A stretch of DNA of 64,000 bases from Gammaproteobacteria bacterium (lineage in GTDB: Bacteria; Pseudomonadota; Gammaproteobacteria; Steroidobacterales; Woeseiaceae): NCBI GenBank assembly GCA_013151645.1, contig JAADHU010000034.1, positions 1 to 64,000 on the forward strand, in the 5' to 3' direction. Both the position numbers and the translations under genes were made by a program. The notes under the pieces are model-generated. The model had not been told where the DNA came from and ran no database searches. It saw only the letters and a program-made list of their open reading frames with translations. Positions 42,786 to 51,406 of this stretch are shown here, piece after piece (the first letter of the stretch is position 1; each line of letters opens with the position of its first letter).

Positions 42786-44302
42786 CGGTCACCTGCCTCA
42801 TGCAAACGCTCATGGAGACTGTCTTGCGCTACCTGGTAGTCGGAAAAATCGAGTCGTTGATCGCCGATGATCTGATAATTTTCATGTCCCTTGCCGGCGA
42901 TCAGAATGACGTCTTCAACTTGAGCGTTCTGAACGGCGTGCGCAATCGCTGTCGCCCTGTCCTCGATGGCCACCGCATCGTCATCCATCCCTGCAAGTAC
43001 CTGGCCGATAATGTCGCCCGGCGGCTCACTGCGCGGATTGTCATTGGTCACAATCGCACGGTCCGCAAGACGGCTGACGATCTTCCCCATGTGCGGCCGT
43101 TTACCGCGATCACGATCGCCGCCACAGCCAAATACGCACCAGATTTGGGCTTGCGTATGCGGCCGTAGTGCACGCAACGCGGCCTCAATAGCTCCCGGTG
43201 TATGTGCATAGTCAACGTAGACCGTGGGAACGGTACTCTGCGTTGATTCAGTAACAACCTGCATTCGCCCCGGCGGCGCTTTGACCTGCCCAAGTACATC
43301 GCACGCGTCGACGAAGGGAATATCGAACCGCAGGAGTAAAGCCAGCACCTCGACAACATTGGCAACATTGAAGTCACCCGGCAGCGATATCTCGATGTCC
43401 CCGTTACCCCAGGAGCTATTAACTGTTATTCGCGAACCGGTTGGCGTCGATACCACCGAACGAACAAACACGTAGGGTCGGCCGTTAGCCACACGATCGA
43501 AGCGCGTCGAAACAGTCACTACATCGCTGCCACACCGCCCCGCAAGCTCCTGACCGAATTCGCTATCCATGCTGACAATGCGGTGTCGCGCGCTGAACTC
43601 GGTAAAAAGGCGCGCTTTGGCCTCACCATACGCACGCATATTGCCATGGTAATCAATGTGATCGCGGCTCAGGTTGGTGAATATGGCGGCATCAAACTGC
43701 ACGCCATCAACGCGACCCTGAGCCAGCCCGTGGGACGAAACCTCGATAGCGACATCGCTTGCGCCGGCGTCACGAAACAGCGCCAGTTGCCGGTGTAGTT
43801 CGAGACAGGGCGGCGTGGTCATACCCAGATCGCTGACGACGCCATCGAACTCGGCGCCAAGCGTGCCGATGTACGCGCATCGGCTGCCGAGTTTCTGCAG
43901 ACACTGGGCAACAATCGATGCGACGGTTGTTTTTCCATTGGTGCCTGTAATGCCAATAATATTGACGGCTTTCGAGGGCCAGTCGTACCACCGATTGGCG
44001 ATTTCCCCCAAACGACCGGCGAGATCCTTGACCGGGATGAACGTTGCATCTCCCACAGCCAGGGATTCGTCACCTGTATCTGCATCCCAGACAATGGCGG
44101 CCGCTCCGGCTTCGATTGCAGCGGCGGTAAAATCCAGCCCGTGCGAGGCGGCACCCTGCCATGCCAGAAAAACGTAGCCCGGTTGCAACTGGCGGCTGTC
44201 GTCGGCTATTCCGGAAACGCAAAGTGGCGGCGCATCGACGAACCCCGCCAGCAACTGCTGCAAGGTGAGATGAGTTTGTAAAATCTCGGCCGGCATACTC
44301 AT
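42782..44302 (-). CDS. murE: UDP-MurNAc-tripeptide synthetase MurE (meso-DAP adding)
   Basis: A 506-residue Mur ligase. ATP loop GITGTNGKTTVASIV near 120, VDYAHTPGA near 365, and DNPRSEPP near 420. The DNPR motif is the mark of enzymes that add meso-diaminopimelate rather than lysine. Overlaps ftsI and murF by 4 bases. Confidence 0.97.
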   Translation of the reverse strand: MSMPAEILQTHLTLQQLLAGFVDAPPLCVSGIADDSRQLQPGYVFLAWQGAASHGLDFTAAAIEAGAAAIVWDADTGDESLAVGDATFIPVKDLAGRLGEIANRWYDWPSKAVNIIGITGTNGKTTVASIVAQCLQKLGSRCAYIGTLGAEFDGVVSDLGMTTPPCLELHRQLALFRDAGASDVAIEVSSHGLAQGRVDGVQFDAAIFTNLSRDHIDYHGNMRAYGEAKARLFTEFSARHRIVSMDSEFGQELAGRCGSDVVTVSTRFDRVANGRPYVFVRSVVSTPTGSRITVNSSWGNGDIEISLPGDFNVANVVEVLALLLRFDIPFVDACDVLGQVKAPPGRMQVVTESTQSTVPTVYVDYAHTPGAIEAALRALRPHTQAQIWCVFGCGGDRDRGKRPHMGKIVSRLADRAIVTNDNPRSEPPGDIIGQVLAGMDDDAVAIEDRATAIAHAVQNAQVEDVILIAGKGHENYQIIGDQRLDFSDYQVAQDSLHERLHEAGDR

Positions 44303-46026
44303 TGACTCATGGCCTGCATCTGGTCGAGAGGGTCGTTCGCCGGCAACGCGTCGGGCGGCACCGCAAGAAGACGTAGTGATTCCGACATCACATCGGCGAA
44401 CACCGGCGCGGCAACGTCGCTGCCGTAGTAAAGATCACCTTTCGGCTCATCGATTACGACGACTGCAACGAGACGCGGATCGCTCGCTGGCGCTAGCCCG
44501 GCAAAGATGGAGAAATACTTGTCCTCCGAATAGCCCCCTACGGCGGACTTCCAGGCCGTCCCGGTTTTTCCCGCTATACGGTAACCGGCAACGCTCGCCT
44601 TGGTTCCGGTGCCGCCAGGCCGCACGGCTTCTTCAAGCATACGGCGTACCGCGCGCGCCGTTTCAGGCTGCAAGATGCGTTCGCCCTCGCTCACCTGATC
44701 CAGGGCTACCAGAGAGACCGGGCGAATGATGCCATCGCTGCCCAGCACGGCATATGCCTGCGCCAGCTGCAGTGGGGTTACCGATACACCATAACCGTAG
44801 GAGAGCGTCGCCTGGCTGACTGGTCGCCAATGACTATGGTGCGTCAACAATCCCGCGGATTCACCCGGAAAGCCACTGGCGGTCAGCGAGCCCAGCCCGA
44901 AACGGGACATCGTTGTCCAGAGTTGTTCGGGCTCCAGGGACATCGCAACCCGCGTCATGCCGACGTTGGATGAACGTGCCAGTATCGTTGTCAGACTGAT
45001 GCGGCCAAGATTATGGCTGTCCTTAATTTTTTTCGGCCCAACGATCACGTATCCGGGGGTCGTGTCGACCATGCTGTCGGGCTGATAGTCACCGCTCTCC
45101 AGGGCCGCCGCCACCACCAGCGGCTTGATGCTCGAGCCCGGCTCGAAGATATCCGTGATGGCACGATTCCGATAACGTTCCGCAGAATATTGCGCCCGAT
45201 CATTGGGGTTGTAGGTTGGCTGATTGACCATCGCCAACACTTCACCCGTGCGCACATCGAGCATGACGATCGATCCCGAGTCTGCCTTGAAACGCTGGAT
45301 CGCGGCCTTCAACGTTCGGTACGCCAGGTATTGCAGCCGCAGATCGATACTTGTCCGCAGATCCTGTCCGGGGCGTGAGGGGCGGATGCTCTCAACGTCC
45401 TCAACGGACCGACCCAGACGATCCTTGAGCACGCGCTTGGCACCCGATTCACCACTGAGCCAATGATTAAATTCGAGCTCAAGCCCTTCCTGACCACGGT
45501 CATCGATATTGGTAAACCCGACCAGATGCCCGGTCACTTCGCCTGACGGGTAATAGCGCCGATATTCTCTTTGCACATTTACGCCCGGCAGCTTCAACGC
45601 CATGACCCGGTGTGCCTGGTCCGGACCCAGATGGCGCTTCAGGTAGACGAATTCCTTGTCCATTGACCGGGTAATTTTTCGTTTCAGCGCCTCCGGGTCC
45701 AACTGGAGAACTTTTGCCAGCTGCCCGACCCGGTCTACGGCTGTGGCGAGTTCTCCGGGATTGATCCAGACACTGTCGACCGGCGTACTGATCGCCAGCG
45801 GCTCCCCGTTTCGGTCCGTAATTGATCCACGATGTGCCGTTATTTTTTCAGTGCGCAAATGCCGTGTATCGGCCTGTCGGTTCAAGAAATCCTTGTTGAG
45901 GACCTGAAGGTGTACGGCACGAGCCAGCAACGATGCCGCTATAAGGACGAAAAACACCAGCACGAAAACAGAACGCGCGACAAATCGTTGCGCGGTTTGT
46001 TCTTTAGTTTCCGCACCGCGATTCAT
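44299..46026 (-). CDS. ftsI: Septal transpeptidase FtsI (PBP3)
   Basis: A 575-residue class B penicillin-binding protein. One N-terminal membrane helix (about 18-38), pedestal domain, and transpeptidase domain with SSIKPL (the SxxK serine near 303), SSNVG (SxN near 358) and KTGTAWK (near 492). It cross-links septal peptidoglycan with FtsW. Overlaps ftsL and murE by 4 bases. Confidence 0.97.
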   Translation of the reverse strand: MNRGAETKEQTAQRFVARSVFVLVFFVLIAASLLARAVHLQVLNKDFLNRQADTRHLRTEKITAHRGSITDRNGEPLAISTPVDSVWINPGELATAVDRVGQLAKVLQLDPEALKRKITRSMDKEFVYLKRHLGPDQAHRVMALKLPGVNVQREYRRYYPSGEVTGHLVGFTNIDDRGQEGLELEFNHWLSGESGAKRVLKDRLGRSVEDVESIRPSRPGQDLRTSIDLRLQYLAYRTLKAAIQRFKADSGSIVMLDVRTGEVLAMVNQPTYNPNDRAQYSAERYRNRAITDIFEPGSSIKPLVVAAALESGDYQPDSMVDTTPGYVIVGPKKIKDSHNLGRISLTTILARSSNVGMTRVAMSLEPEQLWTTMSRFGLGSLTASGFPGESAGLLTHHSHWRPVSQATLSYGYGVSVTPLQLAQAYAVLGSDGIIRPVSLVALDQVSEGERILQPETARAVRRMLEEAVRPGGTGTKASVAGYRIAGKTGTAWKSAVGGYSEDKYFSIFAGLAPASDPRLVAVVVIDEPKGDLYYGSDVAAPVFADVMSESLRLLAVPPDALPANDPLDQMQAMSQ

Positions 46027-46319
46027 TCGCCCGCACGCCTCGCGATCACATTCAGTTCACGCGTGTCCGGTCGCGACAAGGACAATTCGTCGGTAGCCAC
46101 CTGTTCGATTCGTGCGTGCGTCGCCCAGGTACTCTGTTCAATCTGCAGCTGTCCCCATTCGATATTGAGTGCATCCCGTTCTGCGGTTAACTGCTCCAGG
46201 CCGACGAACAATTTGCGCGACTCATGTTTCGTATAAATAACGGCCACCGCCGAGATGACACAAGCGATGGCAAATACCAATGTCAGCAATACCGGTTGTC
46301 GCTGCGTCGTAATCTCCAT
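46023..46319 (-). CDS. ftsL: Cell division protein FtsL
   Basis: A 98-residue bitopic protein: membrane helix at about 10-30, then a leucine-zipper-like coiled coil (KLFVGLEQLTAERDALNIEWGQLQIEQ). FtsL forms a trimer with FtsB and FtsQ and activates FtsWI. Weak sequence conservation is normal; position between rsmH and ftsI settles the call. One-base overlap with the rsmH stop (TGATG). Confidence 0.93.
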   Translation of the reverse strand: MEITTQRQPVLLTLVFAIACVISAVAVIYTKHESRKLFVGLEQLTAERDALNIEWGQLQIEQSTWATHARIEQVATDELSLSRPDTRELNVIARRAGE

Positions 46320-47263
46320 CAGATACGCTCCGCCACTCTCAGGTGAGCGCTGCGACTGCGCGCATTCGCCGCGATCTCTTCTTCCGTTGCGCTCACCGCC
46401 TTGCCGACAAGCTTCATGGGCGGCAAGAATTCCCGCGGAATATCCGGCATGCCACGATATTGTTCCGGCACCTTCGATGCATTGCGCATGAAGCGCTTCA
46501 CTGGCCGGTCTTCAAGCGAATGAAAACTGATGACACAAAGTCGGCCACCCTTCGTAAGGACATCAAGGCTGGAATCGAGTGCCGCATCGAGTTGCCGTAA
46601 CTCATCGTTGACGCGAATTCGAATGGCTTGAAAGGTTTTCGTCGCCGGATGTTTGCGCCGCCCGCGTTGTGGTACGACACCGGCAACGATGCTGGCCAGT
46701 TCGACTGTACGTCGAATCGGTTTCTGCTGACGAGCAGAGACAATTGCCGCTGCAATGCGCCCCGCAAATTTTTCCTCGCCGTATCCGAACAACACTTTCT
46801 TCAGATCCTTTTCGTCCACGGTTGCCAGCCACTCGGCTGCCCCTTGACCCGAGGTCGGGTCCATTCGCATATCGAGTGGTCCGTCCGTTTGAAAACTGAA
46901 ACCGCGGTCGGCCTCATCCAGTTGTGGCGACGAGACCCCAAGGTCCAATAGCAGGCCGTCCACCTGACCGAGCAAATGCCTTTCGACCGCAATACTTTTG
47001 AGTTCCGCAATTTCGCCCCTTATCAATTCGAACCGCGGATCACCGATGAGCGTTTCACTTGCTTCCGCAATGGCCTGTGGATCACGATCGATCGCCAACA
47101 ATCGACCTTCCGGCCCCAACGACTGCAAGATCGCGCTGCTGTGCCCCCCGCGGCCGAACGTCCCGTCTATATATATGCCGTTTGTTCTGATTCGCAGTCC
47201 ATCCAGGACGGCCTGAAGAAGAACCGGTACGTGCTTTTCGCTGTCGCTTTTATCCGCACTCAC
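46319..47263 (-). CDS. rsmH: 16S rRNA m4C1402 methyltransferase RsmH
   Basis: A 314-residue SAM-dependent enzyme that N4-methylates C1402 in the decoding centre; rsmI in this window methylates the ribose of the same base. HVPVLLQAVLDGL and YIDGTFGRGGHSSAIL are the N-terminal signatures. I chose the GTG four bases after the mraZ stop because the family N-terminus begins there; the longer frame overlaps mraZ. The ribosome site is weak, so coupling to mraZ is likely. Confidence 0.94.
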   Translation of the reverse strand: MSADKSDSEKHVPVLLQAVLDGLRIRTNGIYIDGTFGRGGHSSAILQSLGPEGRLLAIDRDPQAIAEASETLIGDPRFELIRGEIAELKSIAVERHLLGQVDGLLLDLGVSSPQLDEADRGFSFQTDGPLDMRMDPTSGQGAAEWLATVDEKDLKKVLFGYGEEKFAGRIAAAIVSARQQKPIRRTVELASIVAGVVPQRGRRKHPATKTFQAIRIRVNDELRQLDAALDSSLDVLTKGGRLCVISFHSLEDRPVKRFMRNASKVPEQYRGMPDIPREFLPPMKLVGKAVSATEEEIAANARSRSAHLRVAERI

Positions 47264-47267
47264 CCGA

Positions 47268-47717
47268 CTACAATGAGAGCGACTCAAGCTCCGCCGGCAG
47301 ATCGACATCGTCATCTGCGTTGAGCCATGAATCTCGCTTCTCATTCCAACTGTCTTCATCCCACAGCTCGAACTTGTTGCCCTGGCCGAGCAAAATCGCC
47401 TGTTTTGTCAAACCGGCGAATTCCCTGAGCTCAACCGGCAACAGGATTCGTCCGTGGCCATCGATTTCCAGCTCAGTCGCATAACCAACCATCAGTCGCT
47501 GCAGCCTCCTTGCCTGTGGATTCAAGCTCGGCAGCGCCACCAGCTTCTGCTCAATACTTTCCCATTCCGGAAACGGATAAATCAGCAGGCAATAGTCCCT
47601 GTCCACGGTCGCAACCAGCTGGCTATTGCAGCACACGGCCAGCCGCTCCCGGTAACGGGTCGGAATGGCCAGACGCCCTTTGGCGTCTAACGTTACTTTG
47701 GTAGCCCCACGGAACAC
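47268..47717 (-). CDS. mraZ: Transcriptional regulator MraZ
   Basis: A 149-residue protein with two AbrB-like SpoVT domains, each with the DxxGR core: LDAKGRLAIPTRYR near residue 12 and IDGHGRILLPVELR near 85. In E. coli MraZ forms rings and binds repeated TGGG boxes to repress the dcw operon. First gene of the cluster, directly behind a promoter with four such boxes. Confidence 0.96.
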   Translation of the reverse strand: MFRGATKVTLDAKGRLAIPTRYRERLAVCCNSQLVATVDRDYCLLIYPFPEWESIEQKLVALPSLNPQARRLQRLMVGYATELEIDGHGRILLPVELREFAGLTKQAILLGQGNKFELWDEDSWNEKRDSWLNADDDVDLPAELESLSL

Positions 47718-47758
47718 GTTTCTTATTGGATGACCTTAGTCCGTGAATGCGAACTCAG

Positions 47759-47793
47759 CCCATCTCCTCCCACTTTTTTCCACTTCTTGCCAC
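47759..47793 (-). promoter_or_regulatory. MraZ operator, four boxes at 10-bp spacing
   Basis: On the minus strand GTGGC, GTGGA, GTGGG and ATGGG follow each other with exactly 5 bases between (plus-strand positions 47789-47793, 47779-47783, 47769-47773, 47759-47763). This is the spacing of MraZ boxes. The first box overlaps the -10 element and the rest lie over the early transcript, a layout suited to repression. Confidence 0.85.
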
Positions 47794-47820
47794 TATATTA
47801 GGGGCTTCCGGCAGCGTCAA
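47792..47820 (-). promoter_or_regulatory. Sigma-70 promoter of the dcw cluster (Pmra)
   Basis: TTGACG (47815-47820; 5 of 6), 17-bp spacer, TATAGT (47792-47797; 5 of 6). Predicted start near 47785, about 68 bases before the mraZ ATG. The best sigma-70 promoter noticed in the window. Confidence 0.85.
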
Positions 47821-48095
47821 CCGACAACTCTGAATGTGTTGTTCTACAGGGACTTAGGGGCTATACCGTGGTCAAATTCGGGCGAATTATGACAGAGAAT
47901 TGGAACAGCAAATCAAGCAGTTAGCGCTGTTATCTAGAAATACACTGAATGATTGGTCGCCAGACGGCGACAGACCAACCCGGCGCAACACAAGACAGTC
48001 GCCGCATTCGGTTCGCGCGGATTTCCCGTTCTGGCTCGAGGTTTCACTCATAACACTAGGATTATAAACGAAATATTGATGAAGCGTGTCGAGAA

Positions 48096-48471
48096 GGTAA
48101 GAGCCGGCCGTAAGCCGGGTTCTGTCGTGGGACAATCATTCATCTGGGACAGCCGTCGCCGACTGCCTCTAGCAACCTACCCGGGAGTCCGCTCGGGACC
48201 GGCGGTGCGACAACGAGGCCGCATACTCCCCTATTTGGTCTTGCTCCCGGCGGGGTTTACCTTGCCACGGCGTGTTGCCACCCGCGCGGTGCGCTCTTAC
48301 CGCACCATTTCAACCTTACCGGCACCCGAAGGTGCTTAGGCGGTATATTTTCTGTTGCACTTGCCATGGGCTCGCGCCCTCCAGGCGTTACCTGGCGCCG
48401 TGTCCGAAGGAGCCCGGACTTTCCTCCACCCGCGTCATTACAACGCGAACGGCGATTGCCTGGCCGACTCT
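48096..48471 (-). ncRNA. rnpB: RNase P RNA, bacterial class A
   Basis: The catalytic RNA that trims the 5' leader of tRNAs. On the minus strand the 5' part reads AGAGTCGGCCAGGC and pairs with GGCCGGCTCTT at the 3' end (helix P1). The universal blocks are present: GGAGGAAAGTCCGGGCTCC (P4 side and CR-I, about 48406-48425), CAGGTAACGCCTGG, AGTGCAACAGAAAATA, GGTAAACCCC, AGCAAGACCAAATAGG, and ACAGAACCCGGCTTA near the 3' end (about 48110-48126). Length of about 376 bases is that of the E. coli and Pseudomonas RNAs. Ends are approximate. Location between mraZ and rsmI is also seen in pseudomonads. Confidence 0.97.
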
Positions 48472-48561
48472 TGCCTTCTCGAACTGCCCAGTTTAGCGCA
48501 TTTGGCTCGGTTTGTGAGTTTGGGCTGTCGGGTTGCGGACACGCGCAGTGAATTCGAGCGC

Positions 48562-49422
48562 TTAGTCTTTCAGGTCCAACATCAAACGGTAGATATCGTT
48601 GCGGGGGTGGTTCGTCACGCGGGCCACGATATCGACAGCCTGCTTGCCTGGAAGGCTTTGCATGAGCTCTTCCAGCAGGGTGCGGACTGAAATGGTGGGG
48701 TCAGCCGATTCATCCGCTTGCGCGCCGTGTATCACCAGTACGAACTCGCCTTTGCGGGGAACGCCGCCCTCCTCCAGAAGCTGCGTCAGGCGGCCGAGGT
48801 CCGCCCGCACGCATTGCTCGTGCATTTTTGTTAACTCACGACCCAGGAATGCTTCTCGGTCTGCGCCGAATACTTCGACCAGATCGGTGAGCGCAGCGTA
48901 TATGCGGTGTACGGATTCCAGGAAAATCATCGTGCGTTGTTCACGGCACAGTTTGTGCAGGACGGCCTGTCTCGCCTCGCGTTTCGCCGGGAGGTAACCT
49001 TCAAAGCAGAAACTGTCGGTCGGCAGACCGGCTACGGAGATCGCGCTTATTACCGCGCTGGGGCCGGGAATGGGTGAAACGGAAATGTCGACCGCGTGAG
49101 CAGCCTGTACCAGCCGGTAGCCCGGATCGCTCACCAGCGGTGTGCCGGCATCGCTCACCAGGGCGACGTTCGAGCCGGATTTCAGTCGCTCAAGCACCGT
49201 GCCGATCACCTTTTCTTCGTTGTGATCGTGCAATGCCATTTGTGCGGTTTTGACCCCAAAATGCGATAGCAATCGCCCGGTGTGGCGGGTATCCTCGGCA
49301 GCAATAAGATCCACGCTCGTTAGCACCTGGCGGGCGCGTGGCGACAGATCGTCGCGGTTGCCGATGGGTGTCGCAACCACAAAGAGTATTCCGCAATCCA
49401 ATTCTGAGGGCACTGTGTTCAC
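48562..49422 (-). CDS. rsmI: 16S rRNA 2'-O-ribose C1402 methyltransferase RsmI
   Basis: A 286-residue SAM enzyme of the tetrapyrrole methylase fold. FVVATPIGNRDDLSPRA, AAEDTRHTGRLL and SDAGTPLVSDPGY are diagnostic. It completes the m4Cm1402 modification with RsmH. The start is uncertain: GTG at 49422 is chosen, with a TTG at 49431 and a GTG at 49413 also possible. It is divergent from lpoA. Confidence 0.94.
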   Translation of the reverse strand: MNTVPSELDCGILFVVATPIGNRDDLSPRARQVLTSVDLIAAEDTRHTGRLLSHFGVKTAQMALHDHNEEKVIGTVLERLKSGSNVALVSDAGTPLVSDPGYRLVQAAHAVDISVSPIPGPSAVISAISVAGLPTDSFCFEGYLPAKREARQAVLHKLCREQRTMIFLESVHRIYAALTDLVEVFGADREAFLGRELTKMHEQCVRADLGRLTQLLEEGGVPRKGEFVLVIHGAQADESADPTISVRTLLEELMQSLPGKQAVDIVARVTNHPRNDIYRLMLDLKD

Positions 49423-49453
49423 TTTTCTCAACGTTCCGCGGGAATCTTGCTAC

Positions 49454-51406
49454 ATGATACTGATGTTACAGAAACTGACACGTACGGCGCTTGTTTTGAT
49501 GACAGCGATTACCCTGCTGGGTGGCTGCGCTGTCACGAATTTTTCTGGAATACCAGGAGGTCAATCGGAACAGCGGGCCGCAAATCTGGCACTGCAGGGC
49601 CGCCATGACGATGCTGCGGCAATGTACATCGGCATGGCCAGCGGTGCCTCCGGGCAGCAGCGAGATCGCCTCACACTCCTCGCCAGCGAGCAATGGCTGG
49701 ATGCCGGCGACGGCCGACGAGCGCGCAGCGCGATGCGCGATGTAACTCCCCCTTCTACGGGCGAGCTTTTGTGGTTATGGAATAGCAACAATGCGGCCAT
49801 CGATCTGTGGAACGGCAAACCAGACCAGGCGCTGAGCATACTGGACGCGATGAGTGCCCGGCCATTGCCGCTGAAACACCGCTTGCGCGTCGAAGCGCTG
49901 CGTGCCGATGCCTGGTTCCAGAAAAATGAGCCGCTGCGTGCGGTTCAATTGTATATGCAGCGCGAACAATGGCTGGGCAGCCGTCAGGAAATGTCGGATA
50001 ACCGCCAGCGGCTGTGGGCAGGACTTCGGGTGAGCAGCGTCCGCAGCTTGCGGGACGCCAGCAACATCGCATCAGATCCGATCAGCCGTGCGTGGCTGAC
50101 GCTCGGCGCGCTGGCCGTATCGACCGGACAACAAGGTATCGGCTGGAGCAACGGCGTTCTCCGTTGGCAGGAAATCAATACCGGACACCCGGCGATGTCG
50201 ATTGTTGCGAAGCTCGATCTACCCGAGAGAGGATTACAGGACTTCCCTCGACAGATCGCCTTGCTGTTGCCCCTCAGCGGGCAAAACGGGACGGCCGGGA
50301 GTGCCGTCCAAAACGGATTTTTCGGTGCCTATTACTCAGCCGTTGGCGGGCTTGGCGGAGCGCAGACGATTCGCGTCTATGACGTGGCGGCGACCGGCGG
50401 TGCTCAAGCGGCCTACGAAAAAGCCGTCAATGATGGCGCTGACTTTGTCGTTGGACCGTTATTGCGCGGCTCCGTCAACGACATCGCAACTGAAGCCCTC
50501 TTACCCGTTCCCGTGCTGACACTTAATAACGTTCGGAACGACGTTTACGCGCCGCCGGGAATGTACCAGTTCGCACTATCGCCGGAAGACGAGGCAATCT
50601 CCGCCGCGCAGAGAGTTGTCGCCGACGGCAAAATGCGTGCGGTTGCTCTGATCCCCGACAACGATTGGGGCAGACGCCTGTTAACAAGCTTCGCCACCGA
50701 GCTCGAATCTCGCGGTGGCACGCTGCTGGAATACCGCAATTACACACCACGTGATCAGGATTTTTCGTTCGAGATCGAGAACCTCATGGGCCTCGCGCAA
50801 AGCGCGCAACGCTATCAGCGCCTTCGCGCGAATATCGGCGGACCGCTGCAATTCGACCCGCGCCGGCGGGAGGATGCCGAAGTGGTATTTCTTGCGGCGG
50901 CGGCGCCGGTCGGCAGACTTCTTAAATCACAGCTCAAGTTTCACTACTCGGGCGACTTGCCCGTTTATTCCACCTCACGAATCAATGCGATGGATGGACG
51001 GTCAAACTCCGATCTCAATGGCATCATGTTTGCCGATACGCCCTGGGTCATCGCACCGCAGTCGTGGATTGCCGAACTACCCGAGCTCTATGACGAGTAC
51101 TGGCCGGGCGAACGACGCCTCGGCCGGCTGCACGCGATGGGTTATGACGCTTACCAACTGGTCGCCGAACTGTTTGTTACCCGAACCGGCTCGATGGCTG
51201 AGATCAATGGCACCACAGGACGATTGTCTCTTGATGACACTGGCCAGGTGCATCGTGAACTGGCCTGGGCCATATTTGAACGTGGCGTGCCCGTTCCGTT
51301 ACCTGAACCGATTCGACCGGAAGAGCAAACCGGTCGTGAAGGATTGTCTGGCGAATCATTGCCCGAGCAACCTGCCTCATGGGCCCATCCGACCCAAGAA
51401 CTGTAG
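49454..51406 (+). CDS. lpoA: Penicillin-binding protein activator LpoA
   Basis: A 650-residue outer-membrane lipoprotein. Signal peptide with lipobox LLGGC (Cys25). The N-terminal half is alpha-helical with TPR-like repeats (AANLALQGRHDDAAAMY onward); the C-terminal half (about 265-620) has a periplasmic-binding-protein fold beginning IALLLPLSGQNGTAGSAVQNGF. In E. coli LpoA activates PBP1a. The rsmI-lpoA-yraN-diaA arrangement confirms the call. A proline- and glutamate-rich tail ends the protein. An ATG at 49463 is an alternative start. Confidence 0.93.
   Translation: MILMLQKLTRTALVLMTAITLLGGCAVTNFSGIPGGQSEQRAANLALQGRHDDAAAMYIGMASGASGQQRDRLTLLASEQWLDAGDGRRARSAMRDVTPPSTGELLWLWNSNNAAIDLWNGKPDQALSILDAMSARPLPLKHRLRVEALRADAWFQKNEPLRAVQLYMQREQWLGSRQEMSDNRQRLWAGLRVSSVRSLRDASNIASDPISRAWLTLGALAVSTGQQGIGWSNGVLRWQEINTGHPAMSIVAKLDLPERGLQDFPRQIALLLPLSGQNGTAGSAVQNGFFGAYYSAVGGLGGAQTIRVYDVAATGGAQAAYEKAVNDGADFVVGPLLRGSVNDIATEALLPVPVLTLNNVRNDVYAPPGMYQFALSPEDEAISAAQRVVADGKMRAVALIPDNDWGRRLLTSFATELESRGGTLLEYRNYTPRDQDFSFEIENLMGLAQSAQRYQRLRANIGGPLQFDPRRREDAEVVFLAAAAPVGRLLKSQLKFHYSGDLPVYSTSRINAMDGRSNSDLNGIMFADTPWVIAPQSWIAELPELYDEYWPGERRLGRLHAMGYDAYQLVAELFVTRTGSMAEINGTTGRLSLDDTGQVHRELAWAIFERGVPVPLPEPIRPEEQTGREGLSGESLPEQPASWAHPTQEL

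What the first reader, a model, noticed from the sequence alone, without database searches (positions are those of the whole stretch)
47759..47820. Four-box MraZ operator overlapping the dcw promoter
Four GTGG/ATGG boxes at exact 10-bp steps overlap the -10 and start of a near-consensus promoter. E. coli has three boxes; a fourth may increase binding or bind a larger MraZ ring.
Basis: partly seen in the sequence, partly recalled or inferred. Interest (0 to 1): 0.5.

Follow-up and report, generated by a model that had tools for sequence, protein, structure and literature searches.

The report
Ordinary four-box MraZ operator, cell-division promoter
[quoted passage not shown] about four boxes is the usual number in relatives, so it is real but ordinary.

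Summary
On the minus strand, three GTGG boxes and one ATGG box stand at exact 10-bp steps (47793 to 47760), ending 42 nt before the mraZ start of a dcw cluster. The first box shares two bases with the -10 of a TTGACG-17-TATAGT promoter. The exact array occurs once in the 3.96-Mb genome; chance expects about 1e-4 per 64 kb.

Best reading: an autoregulatory MraZ operator. Four boxes is no oddity. In 92 distinct mraZ upstream regions (the window's own and near relatives) the same four registers are kept, the fourth mostly ATGG (61) or AGGG (20). Four is the commonest run among 58 wider loci by a loose criterion. B. cenocepacia MraZ binds a fragment with four such repeats, and the PDB holds MraZ with a '4 box promoter'. 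E. coli lacks the -10 box; its three GTGG fall on the registers of boxes 2-4. The 'larger ring' idea has no support. No binding was tested.

A by-product may be more interesting: an uncharacterised element CTAAGTnnCTGT, about 39 bp upstream of the -35, conserved at mraZ promoters of near relatives.

The parts
47790..47793 (-). MraZ box 1, GTGG; its first two bases are bases 5-6 of the -10 hexamer
   Evidence: this register reads GTGT 67, GTGG 22, GTGC 3 of 92 regions
47780..47783 (-). MraZ box 2, GTGG
   Evidence: GTGG in 92 of 92 regions, (this box was part of the anchor)
47770..47773 (-). MraZ box 3, GTGG
   Evidence: GTGG in 92 of 92 regions, (this box was part of the anchor)
47760..47763 (-). 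MraZ box 4, ATGG, the weakest box
   Evidence: ATGG 61, AGGG 20, GTGG 3, TTGG 2, other 6 of 92 regions, (not part of the anchor)
47815..47820 (-). -35 hexamer TTGACG
   Evidence: 85 of 92 regions have 5 or 6 matches to TTGACA at a 17- or 18-bp spacer
47792..47797 (-). -10 hexamer TATAGT, overlapping box 1
   Evidence: TATAGT in 87 of 92 regions, TATAAT in none
47846..47857 (-). upstream conserved element CTAAGTCCCTGT (function unknown)
47268..47717 (-). mraZ, 149 aa, GTG start
   Evidence: two PF02381 matches; TIGR00242 153.1 bits against cut-off 98.35
46319..47359 (-). rsmH (mraW); ORF as listed, true start probably inside
   Evidence: TIGR00006, residues 40-345
46023..46319 (-). ftsL
   Evidence: TIGR02209 over its cut-off
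44299..46026 (-). ftsI-like penicillin-binding protein
   Evidence: best model NF011685 FtsI, 556.7 bits, below its cut-off of 737
48096..48471 (-). RNase P RNA, class A (upstream neighbour, not part of the operator)

Best explanation
[quoted passage not shown] Each box is read by one DNA-binding unit of the MraZ ring on one face of the helix (10 bp is about one turn). With all four boxes filled, the protein covers the stretch from the -10 to about 25 bp downstream of the inferred start and so competes with RNA polymerase. Shown: the array, its register, its conservation, its uniqueness in the genome, an intact MraZ next door. Inferred: binding, repression, and that box 1 inside the -10 acts by direct competition with sigma.
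For: Exact 10-bp array just upstream of mraZ. Single exact array in the genome. Same four registers in 92 distinct upstream regions, with no box-like word kept one register before or after; an anchor-free MAFFT alignment gives the same invariant columns. Spacing is rigid: 87 of 92 match TA[TA]AGTG-N7-GTGG-N6-GTGG, and none match with the first step at 9 or 11 bp. The -10 is TATAGT in 87 of 92 and TATAAT in none, as expected if the hexamer also serves as a box. MraZ has D11, K13, G14, R15 and D86, G89, R90 invariant in 20 aligned sequences. Its predicted model matches MraZ structures (1n0f Z 16.8; 9sz7, 'MraZ in complex with 4 box promoter', Z 16.2). In B. cenocepacia MraZ shifts the fragment in which the authors found four such repeats.
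Against: No binding, footprint or expression data for this organism. The sign may differ between organisms: the passages tell of more FtsZ both on MraZ overexpression in M. gallisepticum and in the M. genitalium mraZ mutant. The anchor rewards TATAGTG and GTGG, so part of the invariance of boxes 1-3 is by construction; the unanchored count is 87 of 92, and one region (L016) has the first step at 8 bp by eye. Box 4 is weak: only 3 of 92 have GTGG there. The model has modest confidence (pLDDT 70.2, pTM 0.65).
Confidence: 0.93

Rival explanations
1. The G-rich repeats are kept because the strand folds into a G-quadruplex that controls the promoter, as proposed for the mraZ promoter of Staphylococcus aureus.
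For: Passages of PMC11796246 report a quadruplex in the G-rich region downstream of the S. aureus mraZ promoter and a weaker ligand effect on a reporter when it is mutated. 74 of 92 regions have four or more GG runs over the array.
Against: Only 1 of 92 has four GGG runs, and 18 of 92 have fewer than four GG runs. What is kept is GTG at exact 10-bp steps, including the T that a quadruplex does not need; box 1 lacks GG in 70 of 92.
Confidence: 0.04
2. The array is a chance product of a G-rich leader, and only the promoter is functional.
For: With 3 mismatches allowed the pattern is no rarer in shuffles.
Against: Exact array expected 1.3e-4 times per window; same registers in 92 distinct regions.
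Confidence: 0.01
3. The boxes bind MraZ, but the four-box form marks a distinct mode (a larger ring, or two rings).
For: The number of boxes does differ between loci: by a loose criterion runs of 3 in 11, 4 in 32, 5 in 7, 6 in 3 of 58 loci, and of 3 in 23, 4 in 52, 5 in 17 of the 92 near-relative regions.
Against: A four-box promoter goes with the Mycoplasma genitalium complex in the PDB, and Mollicutes MraZ is described as octameric; the E. coli ring is, as I recall, a dodecamer although its strict boxes are three. So more boxes do not track a larger ring.
Confidence: 0.05

Closest known systems
Escherichia coli K-12 Pmra (mraZ1p) MraZ boxes
   Same: GTGG at 10-bp steps downstream of a TTGACA promoter, in front of mraZ-rsmH (L113)
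   Different: Three GTGG then GGGG. Measured from the start of the -35 (spacer 18, TAAACT) the E. coli GTGG lie at +37, +47, +57, where this window has boxes 2, 3, 4; the register of box 1 reads ACTC in E. coli (sequence).
Burkholderia cenocepacia PmraBc MraZ site (PMC7761207)
   Same: Four repeats of 7 nt with 3-nt spacers, i.e. a 10-bp step, overlapping the start of transcription; MraZ shifts the fragment
   Different: Described as lying downstream of the -10, whereas here box 1 enters the -10
Mycoplasma genitalium MraZ with 4-box promoter (PDB 9sz7; also 9r4j)
   Same: MraZ fold and a four-box promoter, by entry title
   Different: Mollicutes site is given as direct repeats of AAAGTG[T/G]; 29% protein identity over the aligned part; its paper was not found in the library
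mraZ promoters of near relatives (L004-L112; many labelled Woeseiaceae or Woeseia)
   Same: Same four-register array in the -10/start region
   Different: Box 1 is GTGT in 67 of 92, GTGG here; box 4 varies

Membership tests
MraZ operator (MraZ boxes of a dcw promoter) | tandem direct GTGG-type boxes at a 10-bp step | tested here: met
MraZ operator (MraZ boxes of a dcw promoter) | lies between the promoter and mraZ, first gene of a dcw cluster | tested here: met
MraZ operator (MraZ boxes of a dcw promoter) | conserved in register at mraZ of relatives | tested here: met
MraZ operator (MraZ boxes of a dcw promoter) | overlaps the mapped start of transcription | not testable with these tools
   start only inferred from TTGACG-17-TATAGT
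MraZ operator (MraZ boxes of a dcw promoter) | bound by MraZ and represses the cluster | not testable with these tools
   no binding or expression data for this organism
MraZ protein (TIGR00242, PF02381 x2) | two MraZ domains, scores over the curated cut-offs | tested here: met
   fold match
G-quadruplex promoter element | four conserved G runs of three or more | tested here: not met
   four GGG runs in 1 of 92 regions; weaker two-tetrad forms are not excluded

The most novel reading that the evidence does not exclude
The dcw promoter of this organism and its near relatives carries two dedicated elements: the four-box MraZ operator, whose first box is built into the -10, and a second regulator's site, CTAAGTnnCTGT, about 39 bp upstream of the -35 (near -70 from the inferred start, an activator position). 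The second site would belong to a regulator of the division cluster not yet described, possibly acting on this promoter alone.
Probability: 0.3. Interest if true: 0.45.

Novelty: new member of a known kind. Interest (0 to 1): 0.13.

Why it matters
The operator adds one more, well-behaved example to a known class. It also suggests that a box inside the -10 is common among Gammaproteobacteria and that E. coli, often taken as the type case, lacks it. The upstream element, if it binds a protein, would give a new handle on how the division cluster is switched on.

Tried and rejected
Larger-ring idea: set aside for want of support. G-quadruplex: rejected as the main constraint. Chance array: rejected. 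PdhR, reported at the E. coli mraZ promoter (PMC3265435 passages), was considered for the upstream element; its recalled site (a TTGGT/ACCAA palindrome) does not resemble CTAAGTnnCTGT. Rfam found only RNase P RNA in 46000-49500 at gathering scores. The E. coli operator paper (Eraso 2014) is not held and was not read; what I say of it comes from passages of other papers. The paper behind the 2026 PDB entries was not found. No paper search used the letters of the upstream element; two searches looked for mraZ promoter literature in general. Passages of PMC5138195, PMC9395523 and PMC7876045 were seen and add nothing to the argument.

The class-wide pattern TAGTG-N7-GTGG-N6-GTGG was found in 152 of 369 genomes; the reversed control hit about 22 of 369 by my own count of the table. 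Not every match lies at mraZ: in G047 one of two lies on another contig than mraZ. The looser pattern for the upstream element plus a -35 hit 125 of 369 genomes, but its control was also frequent, so I draw nothing from that count.

Full report
What is there. The cluster lies on the minus strand: mraZ, rsmH, ftsL, ftsI-like. Upstream of the GTG start of mraZ at 47717 stand TTGACG-17-TATAGT (47820->47792) and the array GTGGcaagaaGTGGaaaaaaGTGGgaggagATGG (47793->47760). The first GTGG begins at base 5 of the -10 hexamer. RNase P RNA lies further upstream (48096-48471).

Chance. A composition model expects 1.3e-4 exact arrays in the window and 0.008 in the genome. The three-box pattern occurs once in 3.96 Mb, at this place, and the reversed control not at all. 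Allowing two mismatches in the four-box pattern adds three hits elsewhere, against one for the control. Allowing three in the window gives no excess over shuffles.

Near relatives. MraZ was found in 30 of 30 genomes of a kinship sample that includes the window's own, and 80 further loci were fetched by similarity to this MraZ: the best 80 of 581, the closest 93% identical. Their record titles are mostly Woeseiaceae, Woeseia, Gammaproteobacteria or Proteobacteria, with a few others (Chromatiales, Nevskiales, Steroidobacteraceae, one labelled Myxococcales, one Rhodospirillaceae); I did not check these labels. Of 110 upstream regions 92 were distinct, the window's own among them (17 duplicates and one N run dropped). 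In these the register in the -10 reads GTGT 67, GTGG 22, GTGC 3; the next two read GTGG in 92 of 92; the fourth reads ATGG 61, AGGG 20, GTGG 3, TTGG 2, other 6; in the registers before and after, the commonest words reach only 10 and 11 of 92 and neither is GTGG. The anchoring rule rewarded TATAGTG and GTGG, so I checked without it: 87 of 92 match TA[TA]AGTG-N7-GTGG-N6-GTGG, none match with the first step at 9 or 11 bp, and a MAFFT alignment gives the same invariant columns. The -10 is TATAGT in 87 of 92 and TATAAT in none, which fits a hexamer that doubles as a box.

Wider. In 58 loci (E. coli, 29 from the class sample, 28 from the phylum sample; best-scoring ones, not a random draw) runs of boxes at 10 bp number 1 in 1, 2 in 4, 3 in 11, 4 in 32, 5 in 7 and 6 in 3; steps of 8, 9, 11 and 12 bp reach 4 in at most one locus each. 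By the same rule the 92 near-relative regions have runs of 3 in 23, 4 in 52 and 5 in 17. A box counts there if it matches GTGG in 3 of 4 bases or is GTGT, so E. coli (GTGG x3, GGGG) counts as four by the same looseness that admits ATGG here. By strict GTGG, E. coli and this window both have three. What differs is place: from the start of the -35, E. coli boxes lie at +37, +47, +57 (and GGGG at +67), those of the window at +27, +37, +47, +57 (from the sequences). The window's extra box is therefore the one inside the -10. That box with the next two, TAGTG-N7-GTGG-N6-GTGG, occurs in 152 of 369 genomes of the class (control about 22 by my count; not all matches are at mraZ).

Protein. The neighbouring MraZ passes TIGR00242 (153.1 bits, cut-off 98.35) with two PF02381 matches. 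A model from 20 aligned sequences (pLDDT 70.2, pTM 0.65) matches MraZ of Mycoplasma pneumoniae (1n0f, Z 16.8, rmsd 2.9 over 134) and the entry 9sz7 titled 'CryoEM structure of MraZ in complex with 4 box promoter from Mycoplasma genitalium' (Z 16.2, rmsd 3.0 over 134).

Literature. PMC7761207 (passages and section 8 read) reports that B. cenocepacia MraZ shifts a fragment in which the authors identify four 7-nt repeats with 3-nt spacers, overlapping the start of the dcw operon, and calls the Mollicutes complex an octameric toroid. PMC8475190 (passages) gives the Mollicutes site as direct repeats of AAAGTG[T/G]. A four-repeat MraZ site is therefore already in print.

Mechanism. MraZ bound to four boxes on one face of the helix would cover the -10 to about +25 and block polymerase, closing a negative loop on its own operon. 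Repression is the sign reported for E. coli (PMC7761207 introduction); for this organism it is inferred.

By-product. The same 92 regions hold a second element, CTAAGTnnCTGT, exact in 57 and within one mismatch in 79; the reversed motif never does better than two mismatches (6 of 92). It starts 39-40 bp before the -35 in 65 of those 79. An extended form, CTAAGTnnCTGTASAACAA, occurs in 13 of 30 genomes (the window's own included), once in each, and in all 13 beside mraZ (one search read). Of the 58 wider loci, 12 have the element within one mismatch, against 0 for the control, 8 of the 12 at 51-53 bp before the -35, some 12-13 bp further than in the near relatives; in E. coli the best match in the stretch scanned has 4 mismatches. 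I take the element as a likely protein site of unknown owner; nothing here shows that a protein binds it.

Noticed in passing
window 47846-47857 (-); L004-L112 upstream of mraZ: Conserved element CTAAGTnnCTGT about 39 bp upstream of the -35 of the dcw promoter; within one mismatch in 79 of 92 distinct regions, reversed control 0 of 92. Owner unknown.
   Followed up: partly
L114-L170 upstream of mraZ: In 12 of 58 wider loci the same element (within one mismatch) is present, in 8 of these 51-53 bp before the -35, and often followed by an A-rich AAAGnAnGAATTT-like stretch (by eye).
   Followed up: partly
   Followed up: no
window 28592 (-): A four-unit GTGn/nTGG run at an 11-bp step, the only other such run in the window for steps 6-14; probably chance.
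   Followed up: no
window 48096-48471 (-): RNase P RNA (class A) lies co-directionally upstream of mraZ; the ORF beyond it, 48562-49431 (-), I take for rsmI by eye (not searched).
   Followed up: no
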